Below, one piece after another: positions 17,925 through 36,659 of a stretch of 64,000 bases of DNA (its first letter is position 1; each line of letters starts with the position of its first letter). The DNA lies in assembly GCA_018350325.1 (NCBI GenBank), contig JAEVLN010000006.1, forward strand, positions 1,387,193 to 1,451,192. The letters are read 5' to 3'. A program made the translations under genes and the position numbers. Origin of the DNA: Globodera rostochiensis (Eukaryota; Nematoda; Chromadorea; Rhabditida; Heteroderidae). The notes beneath the pieces were generated by a model. The model saw nothing but the letters and a program-made list of their open reading frames with translations, ran no database searches and was not told the origin of the DNA.

Positions 17925-18127
17925 TTCAATGGGCGAAACGTCCGTTTTTCGTTACTGGGCGAAATGTCCATGGGCGAAATGGCCAATGGGCGAAATGTCC
18001 ATCGGCGAAATGTCCAATGGGCGAAATGTCCAATGGGCAAAATGTCCAATGGGCGAAATGTCCAACGGGCGAAATGTCCAATTGGCGAAATGTCCATTTG
18101 GCGAAATGTCCAATGGGCGAAATGTCA
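17925..18127. repeat. 16-17-bp minisatellite, GGGCGAAATGTCCAAT unit
   Basis: About 12 imperfect copies. Open frames in all directions here are products of the repeat period. The array abuts dispersed repeat R1 copy 2. Confidence 0.9.
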
Positions 18128-20072: not shown

Positions 20073-23000
20073 TCAAAGAAGCATGTGCACATGAAAAATT
20101 TCTGCATCCGCAAACCGTGGGTTCTTTATAACATCGAAACCCTGTTGGGTTTTGACCGCATTGATTTCTGTTTCAGTAATACCTGTTAAAATTAAATTTA
20201 AAAATTTAAATTAAATTGTTTTTTTGCACCCAAAGTAATTTTGGCGTCGACTTCGCTCCACATCCAATTTCGTATCAAAACCAAATGAGCATAAAGTTCA
20301 GGGTCACATAGTCCCTTAAACCATTTTTTCATTTCCAATGCGAGTCCAATGAGCGGGTTTGGCTTATTGTGTGCCCACCATTTGCTAGTTAAGATAAATT
20401 GATATATTTTAAGTAAAAATTGAACATCTATCTAGTGGGTTTTGGAAATTGTTTAAAAACTATATACCCACAAAAATTTAAAGGATGAAAATCAAATTTT
20501 AAACATAAAAACAATTTTTGGGGTGTTTTTAAACATACTGAGGCAAGAACCAAAAAATGACCAATTATCAAAGGCAAAATTTTGTAGCGCATTAATAGTC
20601 AAAGCTTCTTACATTATGATTCTATGCATATCTGATTTCATCATTGGGGTGAACCACTGCCAAGCGCGTTGTTCCCTGTCGTGTTGGTCGTATTCGTAAC
20701 GGACAACGATCACATTGATTTCATTTAAATCGTACAAAGTGAAGCAGAAAGTTGATGGACAAATGGTAGCCACCTGCCGTTTGTCTGTCCAATGAGGAAA
20801 AACAATGACCGTGTGTTTATACCTGAATTTTTGTAAATGCTTATCGTACAAAGGATAAAACAAAAGGAACAAACTGTCTTATGAAAACACTTTTAAATTT
20901 TTTCATAGGGTGGAAGATAAAAAGAGGTTATATATGGTATGCCATGTCCTCCCATTTTACTTACTTTTCTTCGCCCATTTCGTCGAGCACAAGCTTTAAA
21001 GCTTTCGCTACCCTTTCATACTCTTCTTTGCTCTCGATGATTGGTGATTTACCTTTTGCTATTGTTTGTGCATAAGCGCTTGAAATTGTTGGCCAAGTCA
21101 TTGCCTGAATTAAACAGATATAACAAAAAATAAATGAACTTCCCAGATAATTCTAAAGCAAAAAATTAGCCAAAATGGGGTCCGATTTTTCAAAAGAGTA
21201 ATTCATCCCAGATAAAAGCAAAAATCATAACTAGGGTTGGCAGAAATATTGCCTAAAAAGACGAAATATTGCCTTACCGAAAATAATGATTAAAATCCCT
21301 AATCAATATTGATTTATTTTTTATTAAAACATTTTTCTGAGCAAATAATCAGCAAAAATCAATTTAATTGAGACAATAACCAATTAAAACATTTTTAAGT
21401 GATACGCCAAAAAATACTTTTGAGCCAAAAAATTTGCCAACATATGGATTTTTGGAGGAAAACAAAATTTTTCGAATAAATGTGTTCTAGGGTTGGCAGA
21501 AATATTGACTAAAAAAGACAAAATATAATCTTATAATATTGAATAAAAAATCCGGAAAATAATGATTAAAAAAAATCCTTAAAAAATGACCAATAAAAAA
21601 GAAAATTTGAAAAAGGGAAATCTAAACTGTTATTTATAGAACGATTGGCAAGAGTAAATTTTAAATAAAATTGTAAAAATTCTGTATTTTTAAGCTAATG
21701 ACAAAAAGACATGGTATTCCTTTGATTTGCTTAACTTACCAGTCTTGTGCTTATCCAGTCAGCCACATGTGCGGCAATTTCTTTCAATAACAATCCAATT
21801 TTTCTGTTTTCTATTTCAATTGTTTCGCCAGTATAAGAAAATTCGTTACAATGTGCCGCGATTAAAACCTAAATTGACAAAATAACAATATGATTGTTAG
21901 AAATATTGACGAAAAAAGGCGAAATATTGACTTATAATATTGACTAAAAACCCCCAAAATTTTGACCAATAACCCGAAAAATTGACCAAATATTGATTTA
22001 TTTTATGAAAAAAATAATTTTTTATGAGCAAATATTCAACAAAAAAATTTAATCCGATTGAGCACAATAACAAATTACCGCATATCCTCTTTTTATTGTG
22101 GACACTTTCCAATAAAAATAATACGCCACCCTCCAATTATTAACCATGACAAATAATTGTAATTTTTTGGAAAAATTTGAATTTGGCGCCAAAAATTTTG
22201 AATTTAGCGCCAAAAATTTTGAATTTAATGCCAAAAAAATTGAATTTTGGGTTAAAAATTTCGCTGCCCCACAAAACACCGAAGCCACGAAATACCGAAG
22301 CCACGAAACACCGACTAAGCCAAAAAACAACTAAACACCGAAAAAATAAAAATAAAAAATTTTAAAAGTCGATAAAAAGTTTTTTTAGGGGTATACAAGG
22401 GCGTAGAATCCGAATCTGACCTCCATTTCGTCCAATTCTGAATCCCGAACCCGGGTTCGAACATTTTTGAAAATTTAAAAAATTTCTAAAATCAATTTTG
22501 GGGCTCAAAATCGTTCTCAAAAAGCATGCATCGGGTCCGGGATTCAGAATTGGACGAAATGGAGGTCAGATTCGGATTCTACGCCAATGTATACCCCTAA
22601 AAAAATTTTTATCGACTTTTAAAATATTTATTTTTATTTTTTCGGTATTTCGTGGTTTTTTGGCTTAGTCGGTGTTTCGTGGCTTCGGTATTTCGTGGCT
22701 TCGGTGTTTTGTTGGCGCGCCAAAAATTTGAATTTAGCGCCAAAAATTTGAATTTAGCGCCAAAATTTTGAATTTTGGGTCAAAAATTTTAAAAAATTTT
22801 GAATTTTGAGCCAATAATTAGCTAAAATATGGATTTTTGAATGAAAAATGGCGAAATATAGATTTTTTTCCAAAAACCCAAAACTATGGATTTATATGGA
22901 CTAATAACTCGTTCTAAATCAAAAAATTTGCGAAATAAATGTGTTTTTTGGACTTCCACACTAAAAGCTATCTGCAAAAAAACATGTTACAACATGTTTT

Positions 23001-25108
23001 TGTCAGCCCTACTGATTATGTATTGAATTTTTCAAACTTTAATTTTTAATCACTTCTAAAAACGTACAGCTTTCATTAATTCCAAGCGGATTATTTCAGC
23101 AAAGTGCAACAGTGGATCTCTTAACCAACTGTTCCCCTCAGCAATTGTTTTTAACCAGCATCTGAATATTTAATTTTTTAAGAGTTTACGGAAACGCACA
23201 CAAAATGCGCCCAAAAAATCAACAACAAATAAATCACAGCTATTAGTATTGATTTTTGCCGATTATTAATTAAATTGTTTTTTAATAAAAATAACAATAA
23301 ACACTACGGTGGAACTTATAGTGAAAGCAATCCATGTACATACCTGTTACGCGATTCTCCCGTTTTTTGTAAATGCGAGTTCAATTTTCTTAGAGCTTCT
23401 CCGACCACTATACAGTTTCCGGCACGTAGAACTAAAACAAAATGTGTTTAAATTGAGTTAGTTACATTTTTGAATATATTATTTGCACTATTTAAGTCGG
23501 CAAGTGAAGGTGAAATTTCCAAATGAAATTTGGTGGGTGGGTATATCACCCCAGGGCTTTATTGTAAAATTTCAAAGAATTTTGCGGAATGAACTTGTGT
23601 GCCAAGTTATGACGTGCCAATAAAATTTTTTCACTTGCCGATCCCTCTTTTGTAAATATTGGATTATTATTATATCTAAATTTTTTAATGTTTTTTAGTA
23701 AAATTTACTTTTTTTTAATTCATTTTGCATGTCTGGCCACGATGCTTTAGCCAATAGTGCTATAAATTTTTTTGTTAATAATATTTTTATTTTAATATTT
23801 TTACAGCTTTTTATGAATTCGTATTCTTCCATCGGCATGGTCAAGTTTTGAAGATGTTGCTGTTCGATCTTTTGAAAAAGCTCGATAACAGCTACATAAC
23901 CTTCCGTCTCTTCGTTTGATTTCAAATTGCAATTGGTTATTAGGCTTTTTTTTAATTGCTGTAATATAATATTTTATGTTTTAATAAATATCAGGTTTTC
24001 CATCAAAAACCATGTCCCGACATTTGCGGCCTAGCCTTTGCGTATCCAAATTCAAAAAATACTTTATACCTGAGGTCAACTAGACTAAATAAATACCATT
24101 TTAAATTATTTATCTAAATTTCTCGTTTTGAACAAAAAGAAATGATCTGCTTAGAGTGGTACGCATTTGGCGGTACTTACCAAGCCATTACCTTTAATGG
24201 GGTCCGACTTAACCCACCCGGATGAAATGTATGACGTATTATTATACACTTTGCAATAAGTGAGGAATCAAATTCTGAAAATAGTTTTCACCTATATAGA
24301 CATTGCCTGTAGAGATACAGACCAATTCTTTAAAAAAATCAAAATGGCGGATTTTAAGAAACGATCTAGCACCACCAAAATCTTCAACAAAAAATCCTGA
24401 TTACTCACAATCAGAACACCACTCGGAGACGTTATAGGCCTTTCACAGTAAGCAATGAATTTTTTTTGATATTGAGACCTATCTCTGAGCGGATTCGTTA
24501 TTTCAATGTAGAATCCCTCAATGTTCATCAACGGTATTATGATTTTCTGAAAATAAATAAATATGAAAATACATTCCATACTTAAATAAAGTAGCTTTAT
24601 TTTTAACGTTTACAATACCTCTTCAAATTCCTGATCAACTAAATAAAATTTTATTGATGATGTTTCTTTTTGTATTTCTTGTGAGATCGCATCAAGCTGG
24701 GTTTTTACAAAGTCATGCAATGTTTTAATGGATTTTTGCTCTTCTGATTCCGGCTTAAAATTTAAATATATGCAAATGAAATAAGGAGTAAATAAATAAA
24801 ATTTGCAAACATTTTTACTTCAAATGCGATTTTGGCTGCTGTCGCAATAAAGGCGCCCACTGGACTTGCGATGCGAACGAAATTCAAGGCGTTCTCACTT
24901 ACAAATTTCAATTTTGCAACGATGTCGTATGTTGAGGCCGTTAGCGACGAAAATTGATCTGCCATATCCTTCACATTCCCAGGGTCTTAATGATAATAAA
25001 TTTGTGTAAATAATAGAGAAAGGCGCTTAGACACCGACCGATTGCTAATGCTTTTGGCCATAAAAGAACCAGGCCCAAAAAGCTGACCTTTAAAAGAAAG
25101 TTTGACAT
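20073..25108 (-). CDS. Predicted secreted, diversifying multi-exon protein, left copy
   Basis: The start at 25108 gives a strong signal peptide (MSNFLLKVSFLGLVLLW, cleavage after KALA); an upstream in-frame ATG at 25171 would only lengthen it. About 12 exons follow on the minus strand, mirroring the right copy: FSSLTASTYD exon near 24824-24984, KTLHDFVKTQLDA exon near 24620-24755, IEGFYIEITNPL exon near 24410-24545, NLTMPMEEYEFIKSC exon near 23715-23955, LRAGNCIVVGEALRK near 23342-23430, CWLKTIAEGNSW near 23090-23160, VLIAAHCNEFSY near 21745-21870, MTWPTISSAYAQ near 20965-21105, VIVFPHWTDKRQVA near 20615-20865, WWAHNKPNPLIGLALEM near 20245-20385, and a last exon ending at TGA 20073. All exons are open in phase where I checked them. 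Predicted size is about 575-580 aa, mostly helical. No family recognised. Confidence 0.68.
22150..22850. repeat. Foldback repeat present only in the left arm
   Basis: Arms of about 250-280 bp pair around 22510-22520. AAGTCGATAAAAA..GGGGTATAC pairs with GTATACCCC..TTTTTATCGACTT, and further out CACCGAAGCCACGAAATACC pairs with GGTATTTCGTGGCTTCGG. Outside lie repeated TTTGAATTTAGCGCCAAAAA units. The corresponding intron position in the right arm lacks it. Confidence 0.8.
23494..23643. mobile_element. 150-bp MITE with CGGCAAGTGAA ends (left arm)
   Basis: Terminal inverted repeats CGGCAAGTGAA / TTCACTTGCCG. The same element lies at the mirrored intron position in the right arm, so it was inserted before the inverted duplication. 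Confidence 0.65.
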
Positions 25109-25724
25109 AATTATGCACAAATAAGGGGCAAAGAATCGAATAATTAATACCAAGTTCACGATCTTGGCCATTGTTTCAATGGGGTGACAAATGTGGGAGT
25201 TTCGCTGAGGTGACGAGTTGAGGTGTGTGATTAGTTGTCGCGCTACGAAATTTTTTTCACGCAAATAACACCAGAAAATGTGAAATTGATTCTTAAATAA
25301 GCAAAAAATGTAGTTGAATATTTTTTTGAATTTTTCTCAAAATAATATTTTTTAATTGCTTTTACACACTTTTATGGGGCTAATTACAAAATTTTGTTAC
25401 ATTTAGAGACCGGACTTGGGCTTCGAGACAAGAATCGAGACGAGATTCTAGTCTCGTCTCCAAAAATCTTGACATCTCGATCTAATGTTGTCAAGACGAG
25501 AATTATAATAAATAATAATGAGCCACATTAATGTGCTTGGTATTAAATAATGAGCCACTTTATTTGCTAACTTTGCAAATAGCGCCAATATTTTTCTATC
25601 CGATGCACAATTTATTTATACAATTTTATATGCGAATAAAGTCAATAAATTGATTGGCAATATTTCAATAATTGCGCAAATATTACATTTACGTCAGTGT
25701 CCATTTCGGCCGAGAGTGTTTTCG

Positions 25725-25963
25725 TAAGTGGTTATTTGCCACCGGTTAAATAAATATCCACATATTAAAATTGAATATTTTGTTTTTTTAAATAATTATA
25801 GCATTTCCGATTAATTTCGAGGAGTGTTTTCGTAAGTGGTTATTTGCCACCGGTTAAATAAATATGCCACATATTAAAATTGAATATTTTTTTAAAATAA
25901 TTATAGCATTTCCGATTAATTTCGAGGAGTGTTTTCGTAAGTGGTTATTTGCCACCGGTTAAA
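25725..25963. repeat. 108-bp minisatellite, left arm
   Basis: Three partial units with TGGTTATTTGCCACCGGTTAAA and AGGAGTGTTTTCGTAAG, mirroring four units at 30211-30560. Confidence 0.85.
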
Positions 25964-26656
25964 TACAGGGTGACAAGAAAGTTCCCGGACACTTTATTTT
26001 TATCGTAACTTTTTTGAAACACAACCAAATGCGATCAAAATACAATCAAAATCAATGGGCCCAGAAAAATGTGCAAAATTGGTTTTGCCACAAAATTTTA
26101 TCGGAGATTAAAAATAATGAACAAAAATGGGGAAAAGAAAAACATGTTTTTTTTAGTGGTTGTTATGCTACTTTTCGACTTATTAAAGCCTATTTTCTAG
26201 GTTTTTATTTTTAAAACTTAAAAACCTAAAAAAACCTATTTTGGAGTTTTGCCTAAAATTTATCAATAAAATGCAATAAAAAGGAGAAATTTGTTAAAAA
26301 AATTTAAATGAGTGCAAAAATTTTTTTAAGTTTAAATTTGGCTTAAAATTTTTTTGTAAATTTAAATTTGGCGCAAAATTTTGTTTGAAAATTTAAATTT
26401 GGCGCAAAAAATTTTTGAAAATTTAAATTTGGCGCCAAAAATTTTGCGTATATTCAAAATTTTTTTACAATTTTTCAACTTAAACCTTAAATTTGCAACT
26501 TTTTAGGAATAATTTTGCTCATTTTTAGCACCTATTTAGCCTTTTTAAGCACCTAAAATCGCATCCCTAATATTTATTACAAAATAAAAAATAGCTTGCG
26601 GCCAAGGGGTCGTGACGGCCCCTTGTGCTCGTGCTCTCCATGGCACGCAGTCGCGT

Positions 26657-26690
26657 GCGTGTGTGTGTGTGTGTGGGTGTGTGTGTGTCT
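26657..26690. repeat. (GT)n microsatellite
   Basis: GCGTGCGTGTGTGTGTGTG continuing for about 34 bases just inside the transposon. Confidence 0.95.
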
Positions 26691-26753
26691 ATATTTTTTT
26701 TCCCTGCCCTGCACTTTTTTGCTTGGTAAGGGAAAAAAGGGTTTAAACTTTTT

Positions 26754-28640
26754 ATGGACAAATTCATTGATCAGATTTTAGGCATTGAATCGGTTCAACA
26801 CCTATGCAGAGCGTTGAATGCGGCAAATAGGAAAATCGCAACACTCCAACGTCAGCTTCAGGCGAAGGAAGAGGAGCTGTCGCTGATCAGCTACCGACCG
26901 ACGACACGAACGAAGCCCACGGCTAGGAGAGCTCTGTCTTTGGACCAACTAACGCCGAACAGCAAGACATGCCGAGTCAAGGAAATTGCGGACAAGCTGC
27001 AACAGTGCTTCCGTCCAAGCTTGTCAGCTTTAATTTTTGGCAATCTGAGTATTTTTAGAATCACCTCTCGACGAAGTTAACAAATTTCTTCGACTTGCAC
27101 GGCATCAGGCAGACTTCAAGTCGCCCAAAAAGGCAGCTGAGAAGAGGACGAAAAAAGGACGGACGAGACCCACTGAAAAAGCGACTGGTGAGCCATGCAC
27201 GTTTTGAGGTGCGGAAAGATTTCGGAGGCCGTGAAACGTTTCTCTGCATGAACGTGAAAGACGTGCTTACGCACCGTGTCGAAACACTGTGGAAGAACGG
27301 TAAATTTTTGTTTTTTTTTTAACTAAACTCTCAGTTACAGGCAAGCTGAACAATAAATTCGACGGCAAATTTCTGATCGCTCTCCTGGGGGATCGCGGGG
27401 GCGGTTCTGTCAAAATAGGCCTGCAAATTGGCAACCTTCAATGTGACGTGAATTCGCCAAAAAACTTTACCCTGATCGCTTTCTGGGAAGGCTCTGAGAC
27501 GCGATCAAAGATGGAGCTTCGACTTGGGCCGGTTCTGGAGCAGTTGGCACAGCTTAGGGAACTGACGCTGGAGGAAGCGGGCACAAAGTTGCCAATCGAG
27601 TGGTGGGAATTAATTAAATGCGGGGTTAAATGAGTCTTCAGGTTCCTCTGCGGCGATATGTCCTTTATATGCGCATGGTAAGGCCACATGGGTCCTGTTG
27701 CCGCCTTTCCGTGTGCCCTTTGTCGCGTTCCGTCCCACAATCACGGAAAAACAATCATCGGACAACGAACGGTCCAATCAATGGAACGGGGCGCCTTGAT
27801 CTTCAGTCGAAGGACAGCTGGCAGCAGCAAACACACAACAGCAGATTCAATTGCTTCTGGAAGCCAGAAGGCTCGTCCGCTTTTTCCAGTGCCGCCTGTA
27901 AACGTTATACCATCTCCGTTCCACACACTGCACAGTGCGGGGCGCAAATGCATTGACTTTTTTGAAATGCATGCAAAGCTGGCTCAAATAATGGCAAAAA
28001 GTGGAGTTATTCGACATGCCAAGACTCAGGAATACACAAGTCATGCATATTTTCGTTACTATTTTACTACCGAAACTTAGGACACATCATGAAACGGCTT
28101 TTGTGTGCATCGGCTGAAATCAGATCGATCGGGTCGCAGTTTGCACAGGACACGGCCGACTTACTTGATGACATTAGCGAGCTGCACCAGTACGGACAGG
28201 CCACGATAATGATGCCGGAACAGATCAGCACGTTTGGTGCAAAATGTTTTGCCATCTCAAGCTATTTTCGGGTCGAACATTGATGTCGAAAACAATTTAA
28301 ATTGTGCTTTAGACTCTACGCGCATGTCATCACGGCTCCGAACGCGTCGGCAACATTTTCACACCGAAACTGCATTGGCTTCTGGGCCACGGACCTGACT
28401 TCGCAAGGCGCTGGGGCTGGTTCGGGTGGCTGTCTGAGCAAGGCATTGAACACTTACACCACGTCTTGAACAAACAGGTTGAGTGTTTTGGGGTGGAGGA
28501 GATTTAGCGGATAATAGGAATTTTAGGCCGAACGCTTCAAGCACTTCAAAGGCGATCAACTTTTGCTGAAGATAGGGCAGAATCAAACACTCCTTAACGA
28601 AGTGTTCGATCGGCGTTGTCTGTTAGCGTGCTTTTGGGGG
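26754..28640 (+). pseudogene. GDKGG / CGDM / EQGxExxH family protein, decayed, inside the transposon
   Basis: Segments in order: a coiled-coil start (MDKFIDQILGIESVQHLCRA), KFLRLARHQADFKSPKKAA near 27075, VKDVLTHRVETLWKNG near 27260, then 27344-28080 with LLGDRGGGSVKIGLQIGN, NSPKNFTLIAFWEGSE, FLCGDMSFICA, HMGPVAAFPCALCRVPS and a Cys/His-containing stretch. After that come an exon from 28315 with FTPKLHWLLGHGPDFARR and LSEQGIEHLHHVLN, and a short last exon from about 28528. This motif order occurs in uncharacterised metazoan proteins that I associate with mobile elements. Frame breaks near 27180 and in-frame stops TGA (27631-27633) and TAA (27685-27687) show it is broken. Its position between transposon ends makes it the candidate transposase. 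Confidence 0.65.
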
Positions 28641-28739
28641 CGGGTTGAAATATTTTTGAAATTAGTGTATTTTTTATTTATTTTTCTTTTCGCGTCGAAA
28701 CTCTTGGCGAAAGGGTTCAGCGGTAATAATATGCAAAAA

Positions 28740-29076
28740 TGAAACGCTGTGCTCCTTCCTTTTGCATTTCTACCCGTCTAACACCTGCATTTCAACTTTC
28801 CATTCATTTGTTTTGCTTAATTCTGCTTTACATTATATCTGATTGGTGCACCTGCCGTTTTTTCCCCGACTTTCGGTGGGTCGGGTTTTTCCCCGGCGGG
28901 CTGTCCCTACCCCTCTTTTTCCTCTCAATCTTCCCCCCCCCCTCTTTTTGTGTCACTTTTTCCCTTTTCCATTCCAATTTCATTGCTTTCTCCACTCGAT
29001 TCTTTTGCCTTCATCATTTTTCCAACTTTTCCAATTTTGCTCATATTTTCCATCAATTTATTTTGCATTGCCTTTT
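28740..29076. other. Pyrimidine-rich internal transposon DNA
   Basis: TTTTCC/CCCCTCTTTT-rich sequence between the pseudogene and the expanded right TIR. The 120-codon frame here is compositional, Phe/Leu/Ser-rich, without supporting features. Confidence 0.4.
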
Positions 29077-30045
29077 CCCCATTTTTGTTCATTATTTTTA
29101 ATCTCCTATAAAATTTTGTGGCAAAACCAATTTTGCACATTTTTCTGGGCCCATTGATTTTGATTGTATTTTGATCGCATTTGGTTGTGTTTCAAAAAAG
29201 TTACGATAAAAATAAAGTGTATTGTAAAAAAATTTTGAATATACGCAAAATTTTTGGCGCCAAATTTAAATTTTCAAAAATTTTTTGCGCCAAATTTAAA
29301 TTTTCAAACAAAATTTTGCGCCAAATTTAAATTTACAAAAAAATTTTAAGCCAAATTTAAACTTAAAAAAATTTTTGCACTCATTTAAATTTTTTTAACA
29401 AATTTCTCCTTTTTATTGCATTTTATTGATAAATTTTAGGCAAAACTCCAAAATAGGTTTTTTTAGGTTTTTAAGTTTTAAAAATAAAAACCTAGAAAAT
29501 AGGTTTTAATAAGTCGAAAAGTAGCATAACAACCACTAAAAAAACATGTTTTTCTTTTCCCCATTTTTGTTCATTATTTTTAATCTCCTATAAAATTTTG
29601 TGGCAAAACCAATTTTGCACATTTTTCTGGGCCCATTGATTTTGATTGTATTTTGATCGCATTTGGTTGTGTTTCAAAAAAGTTACGATAAAAATAAAGT
29701 GTATTGTAAAAAAATTTTGAATATACGCAAAATTTTTGGCGCCAAATTTAAATTTTCAAAAATTTTTTGCGCCAAATTTAAATTTTCAAACAAAATTTTG
29801 CGCCAAATTTAAATTTACAAAAAAATTTTAAGCCAAATTTAAACTTAAAAAAATTTTTGCACTCATTTAAATTTTTTTAACAAATTTCTCCTTTTTATTG
29901 CATTTTATTGATAAATTTTAGGCAAAACTCCAAAATAGGTTTTTTTAGGTTTTTAAGTTTTAAAAATAAAAACCTAGAAAATAGGTTTTAATAAGTCGAA
30001 AAGTAGCATAACAACCACTAAAAAAAACATGTTTTTCTTTTCCCC
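29077..30045. repeat. 482-bp tandem duplication of the transposon right TIR
   Basis: The segment with CCCCATTTTTGTTCATTATT starts at about 29077, 29559 and 30042, so the right terminal repeat is present two-plus times in tandem while the left end has a single copy. Confidence 0.88.
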
Positions 30046-30210
30046 ATTTTTGTTCATTATTTTTAATCTCCGATAAAATTTTGTGGCAAAACCAATTTTG
30101 CACATTTTTCTGGGCCCATTGATTTTGATTGTATTTTGATCGCATTTGGTTGTGTTTCAAAAAAGTTACGATAAAAATAAAGTGTCCGGGAACTTTCTTG
30201 TCACCCTGTA

Positions 30211-30570
30211 TTTAACCGGTGGCAAATAACCACTTACGAAAACACTCCTCGAAATTAATCGGAAATGCTATAATTATTTAAAAAAACAAAATATTCAATT
30301 TTAATATGTGGCATATTTATTTAACCGGTGGCAAATAACCACTTACGAAAGCACTCCTCGAAATTAATCGGAAATGCTATAATTATTTTTAAAAAAAATA
30401 TTCAATTTTAATATGTGGCATATTTATTTAACCGGTGGCAAATAACCACTTACGAAAGCACTCCTCGAAATTAATCGGAAATGCTATAATTATTTAAAAA
30501 AACAAAATATTCAATTTTAATATGTGGATATTTATTTAACCGGTGGCAAATAACCACTTACGAAAGCACT
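30211..30570. repeat. 108-bp minisatellite, right arm
   Basis: Four units beginning AACCGGTGGCAAATAACCAC at about 30214, 30323, 30430 and 30538. Confidence 0.9.
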
Positions 30571-31049
30571 CTCTGCCGAAATGGACACTGACGTAAATGT
30601 AATATTTGCGCAATTATTGAAATATTGCCAATCAATTTATTGACTTTATTCGCATATAAAATTGTATAAATAAATTGTGCATCGGATAGAAAAATATTGG
30701 CGCTATTTGCAAAGTTAGCAAATAAAGTGGCTCATTATTTTAATACCAAGCACATTAATGTGGCTCATTATTATTTATTATAATTCTAGTCTTGACAACC
30801 CCATAAAAGTGTCTAAAAGCAATTAAAAAATATTATTTTGAGAAAAATTCAAAATATATTCAACTACATTTTTTGCTTATTTAAGAATCAATTTCACATT
30901 TTTTGGTGTTATTTACGTGAAAATAAATTCGTAGCGCGACAACTAATCACACACCTCAACTCGTCACCTCAGCGAAACTCCCAACAATGGCCAAGATCGT
31001 GAACTTGGTATTAATTATTCGATTGTTTGCCCCTTATTTGTGCATAACT

Positions 31050-36659: not shown

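What the first reader, a model, noticed from the sequence alone, without database searches (positions are those of the whole stretch)
20073..36659. Two inverted copies of a secreted-protein gene whose exons diverged far more than their introns
Comparing the copies by eye: exon 2 (31174-31325) has 19 residue changes in 49 compared codons against 4 synonymous codons. Exon 3 has 22 changes in 45 against 1 synonymous. Exon 4 has 18 in 45 against about 4. The 72-bp intron between exons 3 and 4 differs at one base, and the signal peptide at one residue. Exon 5 and exons 9-12 are mostly conserved. Conserved signal peptide, conserved introns and hypervariable mature segments are the signature of strong diversifying selection, as in effectors, venoms or host-interaction proteins. 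Gene conversion of patches from other paralogs is an alternative.
Basis: partly seen in the sequence, partly recalled or inferred. Interest (0 to 1): 0.92.

Follow-up and report, generated by a model that had tools for sequence, protein, structure and literature searches.

The report
Twin nematode genes with divergent exons
Two mirror-image copies of a probably secreted potato-cyst-nematode protein gene differ strongly in some exons but hardly in the short introns between them, most likely because DNA exchange keeps evening out the copies while selection has long kept two protein versions apart.

Summary
The genome is taken as Globodera rostochiensis. Copies A (25171-20073, minus) and B (30987-36658, plus) read as 14-exon genes for 546- and 543-residue proteins.

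Reading this as ongoing hypervariability is not supported. Globodera pallida has both versions. Exons 3-5, 9 and 10 differ at 87/216 residues between A and B, but between orthologues at only 11/221 and 13/218, no faster than the rest. Silent sites in these exons are also more diverged than introns (13/145 against 31/856, p=0.007). Noncoding segments give conflicting copy relationships, and pseudogene C has a half-A, half-B exon 9. Best explanation: old paralogues partly homogenised by gene conversion, with exon islands kept distinct by selection, as in primate L/M opsins and Hessian fly SSSGP genes. dN/dS above 1 (2.48 in exons 3-5, p=0.007) is compatible with positive selection but confounded by conversion. 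Effector status is unproven. G. pallida intron DNA would decide.

The parts
20073..25171 (-). Copy A, 14-exon gene, 546-residue protein; exons (5' to 3') 25171-25151, 25087-25039, 24985-24819, 24753-24619, 24546-24409, 23958-23805, 23759-23709, 23431-23344, 23161-23068, 21868-21740, 21104-20965, 20822-20613, 20384-20230, 20182-20073
   Evidence: Open frame with GT-AG splice sites; 29/546 residue differences from G. pallida P0001. No transcript seen.
30987..36658 (+). Copy B, 14-exon gene, 543-residue protein; exons 30987-31007, 31071-31119, 31174-31325, 31391-31525, 31598-31735, 31877-32030, 32076-32126, 32403-32490, 32674-32767, 32872-33006, 34371-34510, 35197-35406, 36348-36502, 36549-36658
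   Evidence: residues 23-543 match G. rostochiensis UniProt A0A914HJ96 (P0010) with 1 mismatch and one 20-residue gap, in exon 12
31174..31735 (+). Divergence island 1 in B (exons 3-5 with introns 3 and 4 between them)
   Evidence: Exons 89/423 differences to A; introns 3 and 4 6/65 and 1/72
24409..24985 (-). Divergence island 1 in A (exons 3-5)
32674..33006 (+). Divergence island 2 in B (exons 9 and 10)
   Evidence: 19/94 and 26/129 differences to A
21740..23161 (-). Divergence island 2 in A (exons 9 and 10, with the 1199-nt intron 9)
   Evidence: intron length
31526..31597 (+). 72-bp intron 4 of B, 1 difference to A, between exons differing by more than 20%
25888..26471 (-). Upstream arm of the palindrome next to A, 584 nt identical to 29703-30286 in inverted orientation
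   Evidence: Inverted repeat I1, 100%
29703..30286 (+). Upstream arm of the palindrome next to B
   Evidence: Inverted repeat I1, 100%
26584..28622 (+). Spacer between the arms: stretch matching residues 15-517 of P0010, including a DUF1280 domain; probably a separate gene fused to B in that database model
   Evidence: tblastn; Pfam DUF1280 E 6.9e-12

Best explanation
A and B are old paralogues of a cyst-nematode protein with a probable signal peptide, arranged head to head as a palindrome with a spacer of roughly 3 kb. They split before G. rostochiensis and G. pallida did. Gene conversion between the copies has since evened out the promoter side, the 5' introns and several exons. In exons 3-5 and 9-10 the two protein versions were kept apart, most likely because conversion that mixed them was selected against. 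Shown: two versions in both species (protein level); raised silent divergence in the islands; conflicting copy relationships along the locus; a mosaic third copy. Inferred: gene conversion as the process, selection as the cause of the islands, and two distinct functions. A likely schedule is that conversion was frequent while the exons were still similar and later became confined to short tracts.
For: (1) G. pallida P0001 matches A and P0002 matches B; 68 of 216 island residues are fixed by version in both species, against 3 of 123 elsewhere where all four proteins align (sums). (2) Islands show no acceleration between species (Fisher p 0.85 and 0.65). (3) Silent divergence is patchy: ML dS 0.177 in islands against 0.029 in the rest, shared-dS test p=4.7e-5; fixing island dS at 0.037 (31/856, distance-corrected by hand) is rejected, p=1e-6. 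Counting only codons with one difference: 13/145 silent sites in islands against 31/856 in introns 1-8 (p=0.007), 125/3147 in aligned noncoding sequence (p=0.009) and 4/206 in other exons (p=0.004). (4) Noncoding relationships conflict: upstream private sites A3 B7 C29, other noncoding A12 B53 C27, p=3e-6. (5) On the same 615 upstream columns A-B differ at 10 and A-C at 32 (sums), although A and C share the A version of exons 3-5 (16/440 differences). (6) C exon 9 is A-like in its 5' half and B-like in its 3' half, the B likeness running into intron 9. (7) One codon, in non-island exon 8, is shared within species rather than within version.
Against: Introns of 65 and 72 bp between exons over 19% diverged are poor substrates for conversion (general knowledge). 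For exons 3-5 alone the silent excess is modest: against neutral values of 0.06 and 0.08, p=0.054 and 0.20, and exon 4 has dS only 0.02. Model-based dS may be swollen by codons with several changes (33 in the islands). Only one residue is shared within species. Upstream, the C-private sites could in part be extra change in C. No G. pallida DNA was available, so clustering of introns by species, the central prediction, is untested.
Confidence: 0.6

Rival explanations
1. Positive selection alone: a burst of adaptive residue changes in exons 3-5, 9 and 10 soon after duplication and before the species split, with introns showing the true neutral age and no homogenisation.
For: dN/dS 2.48 in exons 3-5 (p=0.007), 17 in exon 4 (p=0.009), no silent change in exons 13-14 (p=0.0014), uncorrected for 16 tests. 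Explains the sharp exon edges simply. A-B noncoding divergence overall is about that of A-C (125/3147 and 131/2949, sums).
Against: Silent sites in islands exceed introns and other exons; exons 9-10 have dN/dS 0.76; noncoding relationships conflict. Type-diagnostic sites match Heterodera as B 34, A 22, neither 11, tie 4, so both copies changed. The burst would have to fit into little neutral time and then stop (inference).
Confidence: 0.25
2. Exon replacement: the divergent exons were pasted into one copy from a more distant paralogue, perhaps through a spliced cDNA, which would spare the introns.
For: Islands run on in the spliced message: exons 3-5 plus the first 26 nt of exon 6 (4 of its 5 differences), and the 3' part of exon 8 through exon 10. 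Edges coincide with splice sites.
Against: No donor was found: the own-genome protein search returned 43 matches from 40 scored candidates, lying in A, B, C, a paralogue on C2 (29-53% identity by piece) and one weak match on C21; the list is a lower bound. The one visible mosaic, in C, crosses an exon-intron border, so it looks like a DNA-level event. A continuous island in the message also follows from selection on a protein region.
Confidence: 0.1
3. Assembly or gene-model artefact.
For: Exon limits rest on homology and splice consensus, not on transcripts.
Against: B occurs in a public G. rostochiensis protein model (whether from another assembly is not known) and both versions occur in G. 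pallida; A and B frames are open over all 14 exons.
Confidence: 0.02

Closest known systems
Catarrhine L/M opsin genes (gibbon study PMC3213168: abstract and Results section read; review PMC3924837: abstract and section 3.2 read)
   Same: Exons more diverged than introns between neighbouring paralogues; silent exon divergence above intron divergence; exon versions older than the species; conversion mostly in introns; selection thought to oppose homogenisation
   Different: Opsins are colour-vision receptors with known functional residues, and in the gibbon study dN did not significantly exceed dS; here the copies are inverted, introns inside the first island are 65-72 bp, dN exceeds dS there, and function is unknown
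Hessian fly small secreted salivary gland protein (SSSGP) genes (PMC2955719: abstract and 12 found passages read)
   Same: Plant parasite, clustered copies including an inverted one, conserved promoter, signal peptide and intron, diverged mature part, dN/dS above 1; its authors propose positive selection plus concerted homogenisation
   Different: SSSGPs are small and often hard to align in the mature part; here the protein has about 545 residues, only part of it is diverged, and the two versions are stable between species
Tigriopus GOT1p1/GOT1p2 paralogues (PMC3728101: abstract read)
   Same: Islands of divergence persisting under gene conversion; mosaic copies
   Different: Putative aspartate transaminase; compared between populations, not species
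Hyper-variable apoplastic effector gene family of potato cyst nematodes (PMC4177990: search listing only)
   Same: Variable secreted-protein family in the same genus
   Different: No relation to A or B was tested

Membership tests
Paralogues under gene conversion with selected divergence islands (opsin type) | Exon divergence above intron divergence between paralogues | tested here: met
   Exons 3-5 89/423 against introns 1-8 31/856; not in the 3' half
Paralogues under gene conversion with selected divergence islands (opsin type) | Silent exon divergence above intron divergence in the islands | tested here: met
   p=1e-6 model based; p=0.007 with single-difference codons, p=0.013 for exons 3-5 alone; model test for exons 3-5 not significant if neutral divergence is 0.06 or more
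Paralogues under gene conversion with selected divergence islands (opsin type) | Exon versions older than the species split | tested here: met
   (protein level)
Paralogues under gene conversion with selected divergence islands (opsin type) | Introns cluster by species, not by version | not testable with these tools
   No G. pallida DNA was in reach
Paralogues under gene conversion with selected divergence islands (opsin type) | Recombination between copies | tested here: met
   Conflicting noncoding private-site counts, p=3e-6; mosaic exon 9 in C. No GENECONV-type tract test was run
Hessian fly SSSGP-like genes | Small protein with nearly unalignable mature part | tested here: not met
   546 and 543 residues, 74% identity over 548 aligned columns
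Hessian fly SSSGP-like genes | dN/dS above 1 in the mature part | tested here: met
   conversion can inflate it, and exons 9-10 give 0.76
Secreted plant-parasite effector | Signal peptide | tested here: inconclusive
   By eye only: MAKIVNLVSFLGLVFLWPKALA in B; no predictor available
Secreted plant-parasite effector | Gland expression | not testable with these tools
   No expression data; 1 (A) and 2 (B) ATGCCA DOG-box motifs within 1500 bp upstream, both strands, against 44 in the 64-kb window, so no clear enrichment
Any described protein domain family | Pfam match above cut-off | tested here: not met
   No family at E 1 or better for B, first model; among 9 relatives 7 families with best E 0.0042, and P0001's one match lies below its cut-off

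The most novel reading that the evidence does not exclude
A plant parasite keeps two stable versions of a host-facing protein inside a self-converting palindrome: conversion refreshes promoter, introns and scaffold exons, while exon islands, perhaps first set by a spliced-message-templated exon exchange, are shielded with near splice-site precision.
Probability: 0.1. Interest if true: 0.75.

Novelty: new member of a known kind. Interest (0 to 1): 0.45.

Why it matters
It warns against reading 'divergent exons, conserved introns' as an arms race without orthologues. Here the divergent exons are stable between species and the low intron divergence is the likelier anomaly. It would also point to protein regions that selection keeps different in two copies of a cyst-nematode family without known function. 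One search of the held open-licence library for gene conversion together with nematode, effector, paralog and plant-parasitic listed 4 papers, none of which, by title and abstract start, describes this for nematode effectors; that is no proof that it is not in print.

Tried and rejected
Structure: AlphaFold2 on P0001 with 8 relatives gave mean pLDDT 48.2. Foldseek against the PDB gave 0 matches at E 0.001 or better. The PDB sequence search gave nothing better than E 0.06. No function is drawn from these.

DOG boxes: no clear enrichment. Neutral divergence between G. rostochiensis and G. pallida: not found in the listings of two searches or in passages of PMC4901422, PMC10946958 and PMC8359618. 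The first exon models with 12 exons gave way to 14 exons; searches used the first models, with a different start and 15 residues that are now intron. One search gave 17.3% A-B divergence for 300 bp downstream; this was a misalignment, replaced by 7/185. The cluster of C-private sites in intron 4 may be one event, so I did not use it as proof of A-B conversion. NG86 dN/dS of 1.86 for exons 3-5 was superseded by the ML fit; 16 exon groups were fitted there without correction for multiple tests. Denominators of silent sites typed by hand were checked and replaced.

Dropped before counting: gapped columns, columns outside collinear BLAST chains (parts of introns 5 and 9-12), and, in the three-way count, all of exon 10. 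In one search only P0001 covers exons 11-14 (P0002 stops after exon 10). Protein searches scored only 7999 and 7994 candidates.

Full report
What it is. The window lies in a 92.6-Mb genome of 80 contigs. Residues 23-543 of copy B match the G. rostochiensis UniProt entry A0A914HJ96 with one mismatch and one 20-residue gap, so the species is taken as Globodera rostochiensis. The relatives returned were all named Globodera or Heterodera: 9 proteins and 11, from capped candidate lists. B (first model) has no Pfam family.

Gene models. Both copies have 14 exons and open frames of 546 (A) and 543 (B) residues. No transcripts were available. The N-terminus MAKIVNLVSFLGLV(F/L)LWPKALA looks like a signal peptide by eye.

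The observation. Exons 3-5 differ at 89/423 bases, aligned introns 1-8 at 31/856. Exons 9 and 10 behave alike (19/94, 26/129). The contrast does not hold further 3' (introns 9-13 74/957, exons 11-14 44/615). The A-C pair shows no such contrast: 16/440 in exons 3-5 against 39/1191 in introns 1-8, p=0.76.

Other copies. C, on contig C18, is A-like in exons 3-5 and 10 and is a pseudogene by several lesions: one-base losses in exons 2 and 9, a stop in exon 8, a deletion of 106 nt in exon 6 and one of 94 nt in exon 12. A further paralogue on C2 matches B at 29-53% identity piece by piece.

Age of the divergence. P0001 of G. pallida pairs with A and P0002 with B. In exons 3-5, A/P0001 differ at 9/147 and B/P0002 at 6/142, but A/B at 61/142 and P0001/P0002 at 62/147 (sums). 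Islands evolve no faster than the rest between species (A/P0001 11/221 against 18/325, p=0.85; B/P0002 13/218 against 9/121, p=0.65), yet differ far more between versions (A/B 87/216 against 48/325, p=4e-11; P0001/P0002 84/221 against 11/121, p=3e-9). So these exons are not fast evolving now; they are two old, stable versions.

Selection. ML codon fits gave dN/dS 1.82 for the pair (p=0.006), 2.48 for exons 3-5 (p=0.007), 0.76 for exons 9-10 (p=0.54), 1.65 for all islands (p=0.059) and no silent change in exons 13-14 (p=0.0014). Conversion that wipes silent differences while selected residues stay apart can also push this ratio up (inference), so it does not by itself prove adaptive change.

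Homogenisation. Silent divergence is not uniform: islands 0.177, rest 0.029. The conservative count of codons with one difference gives 13/145 in islands, 4/206 in other exons and 31/856 in introns 1-8. Against that, exons 3-5 alone are not significantly above a neutral 0.06 or 0.08 in the model test (p=0.054, 0.20). Noncoding sequence gives different nearest pairs in different places: upstream of the gene A and B are closest (private sites A3 B7 C29), elsewhere B stands apart (A12 B53 C27), p=3e-6. A-B identity is highest on the side of the palindrome centre, with 584 nt identical. C exon 9 is a mosaic of both versions.

Timing. A, C and P0001 are about equally distant in exons 3-5, 10, 13 and 14 (A/C 23/275, A/P0001 14/275, C/P0001 15/275; sums), so the A-C split is probably not younger than the species split. 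A-C noncoding divergence is 131/2949 and A-B 125/3147 (sums). The exons say that A and B parted before A and C, but the noncoding sequence does not; homogenisation resolves this. Without it, most of the island changes would have to fall in a very short neutral interval. This argument rests on protein-level dating and would be firm only with G. pallida DNA.

Comparison with known cases. The pattern is that of catarrhine L/M opsins (PMC3213168, PMC3924837) and resembles the Hessian fly SSSGP genes, whose authors propose positive selection plus concerted homogenisation (PMC2955719). It is therefore filed as a new member of a known kind. Whether the proteins act on a host is unknown.

Noticed in passing
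26584-28622: The spacer between the two genes encodes a stretch with a DUF1280 domain; a public G. rostochiensis model (A0A914HJ96) fuses it with copy B, probably a gene-prediction error.
   Followed up: partly
29072-30185: 2.3 tandem copies of a 482-nt unit, 99% matches, beside B; matching sequence lies in the A arm at about 25989-26471.
   Followed up: no
30209-30571 and 25714-25965: Tandem 105-107-nt repeats upstream of both genes, 3.4 copies at B and 2.4 at A.
   Followed up: no
17956-18126: Minisatellite of a 16-nt unit, 10.8 copies.
   Followed up: no
36880-36928: A second copy, 86% alike, of 36602-36650 in the last exon of B lies 278 nt on, perhaps the relic of a partial duplication.
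   Followed up: no
L009:1-9801 with L010:1-2200 (contig C18): Pseudogene C, with an exon 9 that is A-type in its 5' half and B-type in its 3' half.
   Followed up: yes
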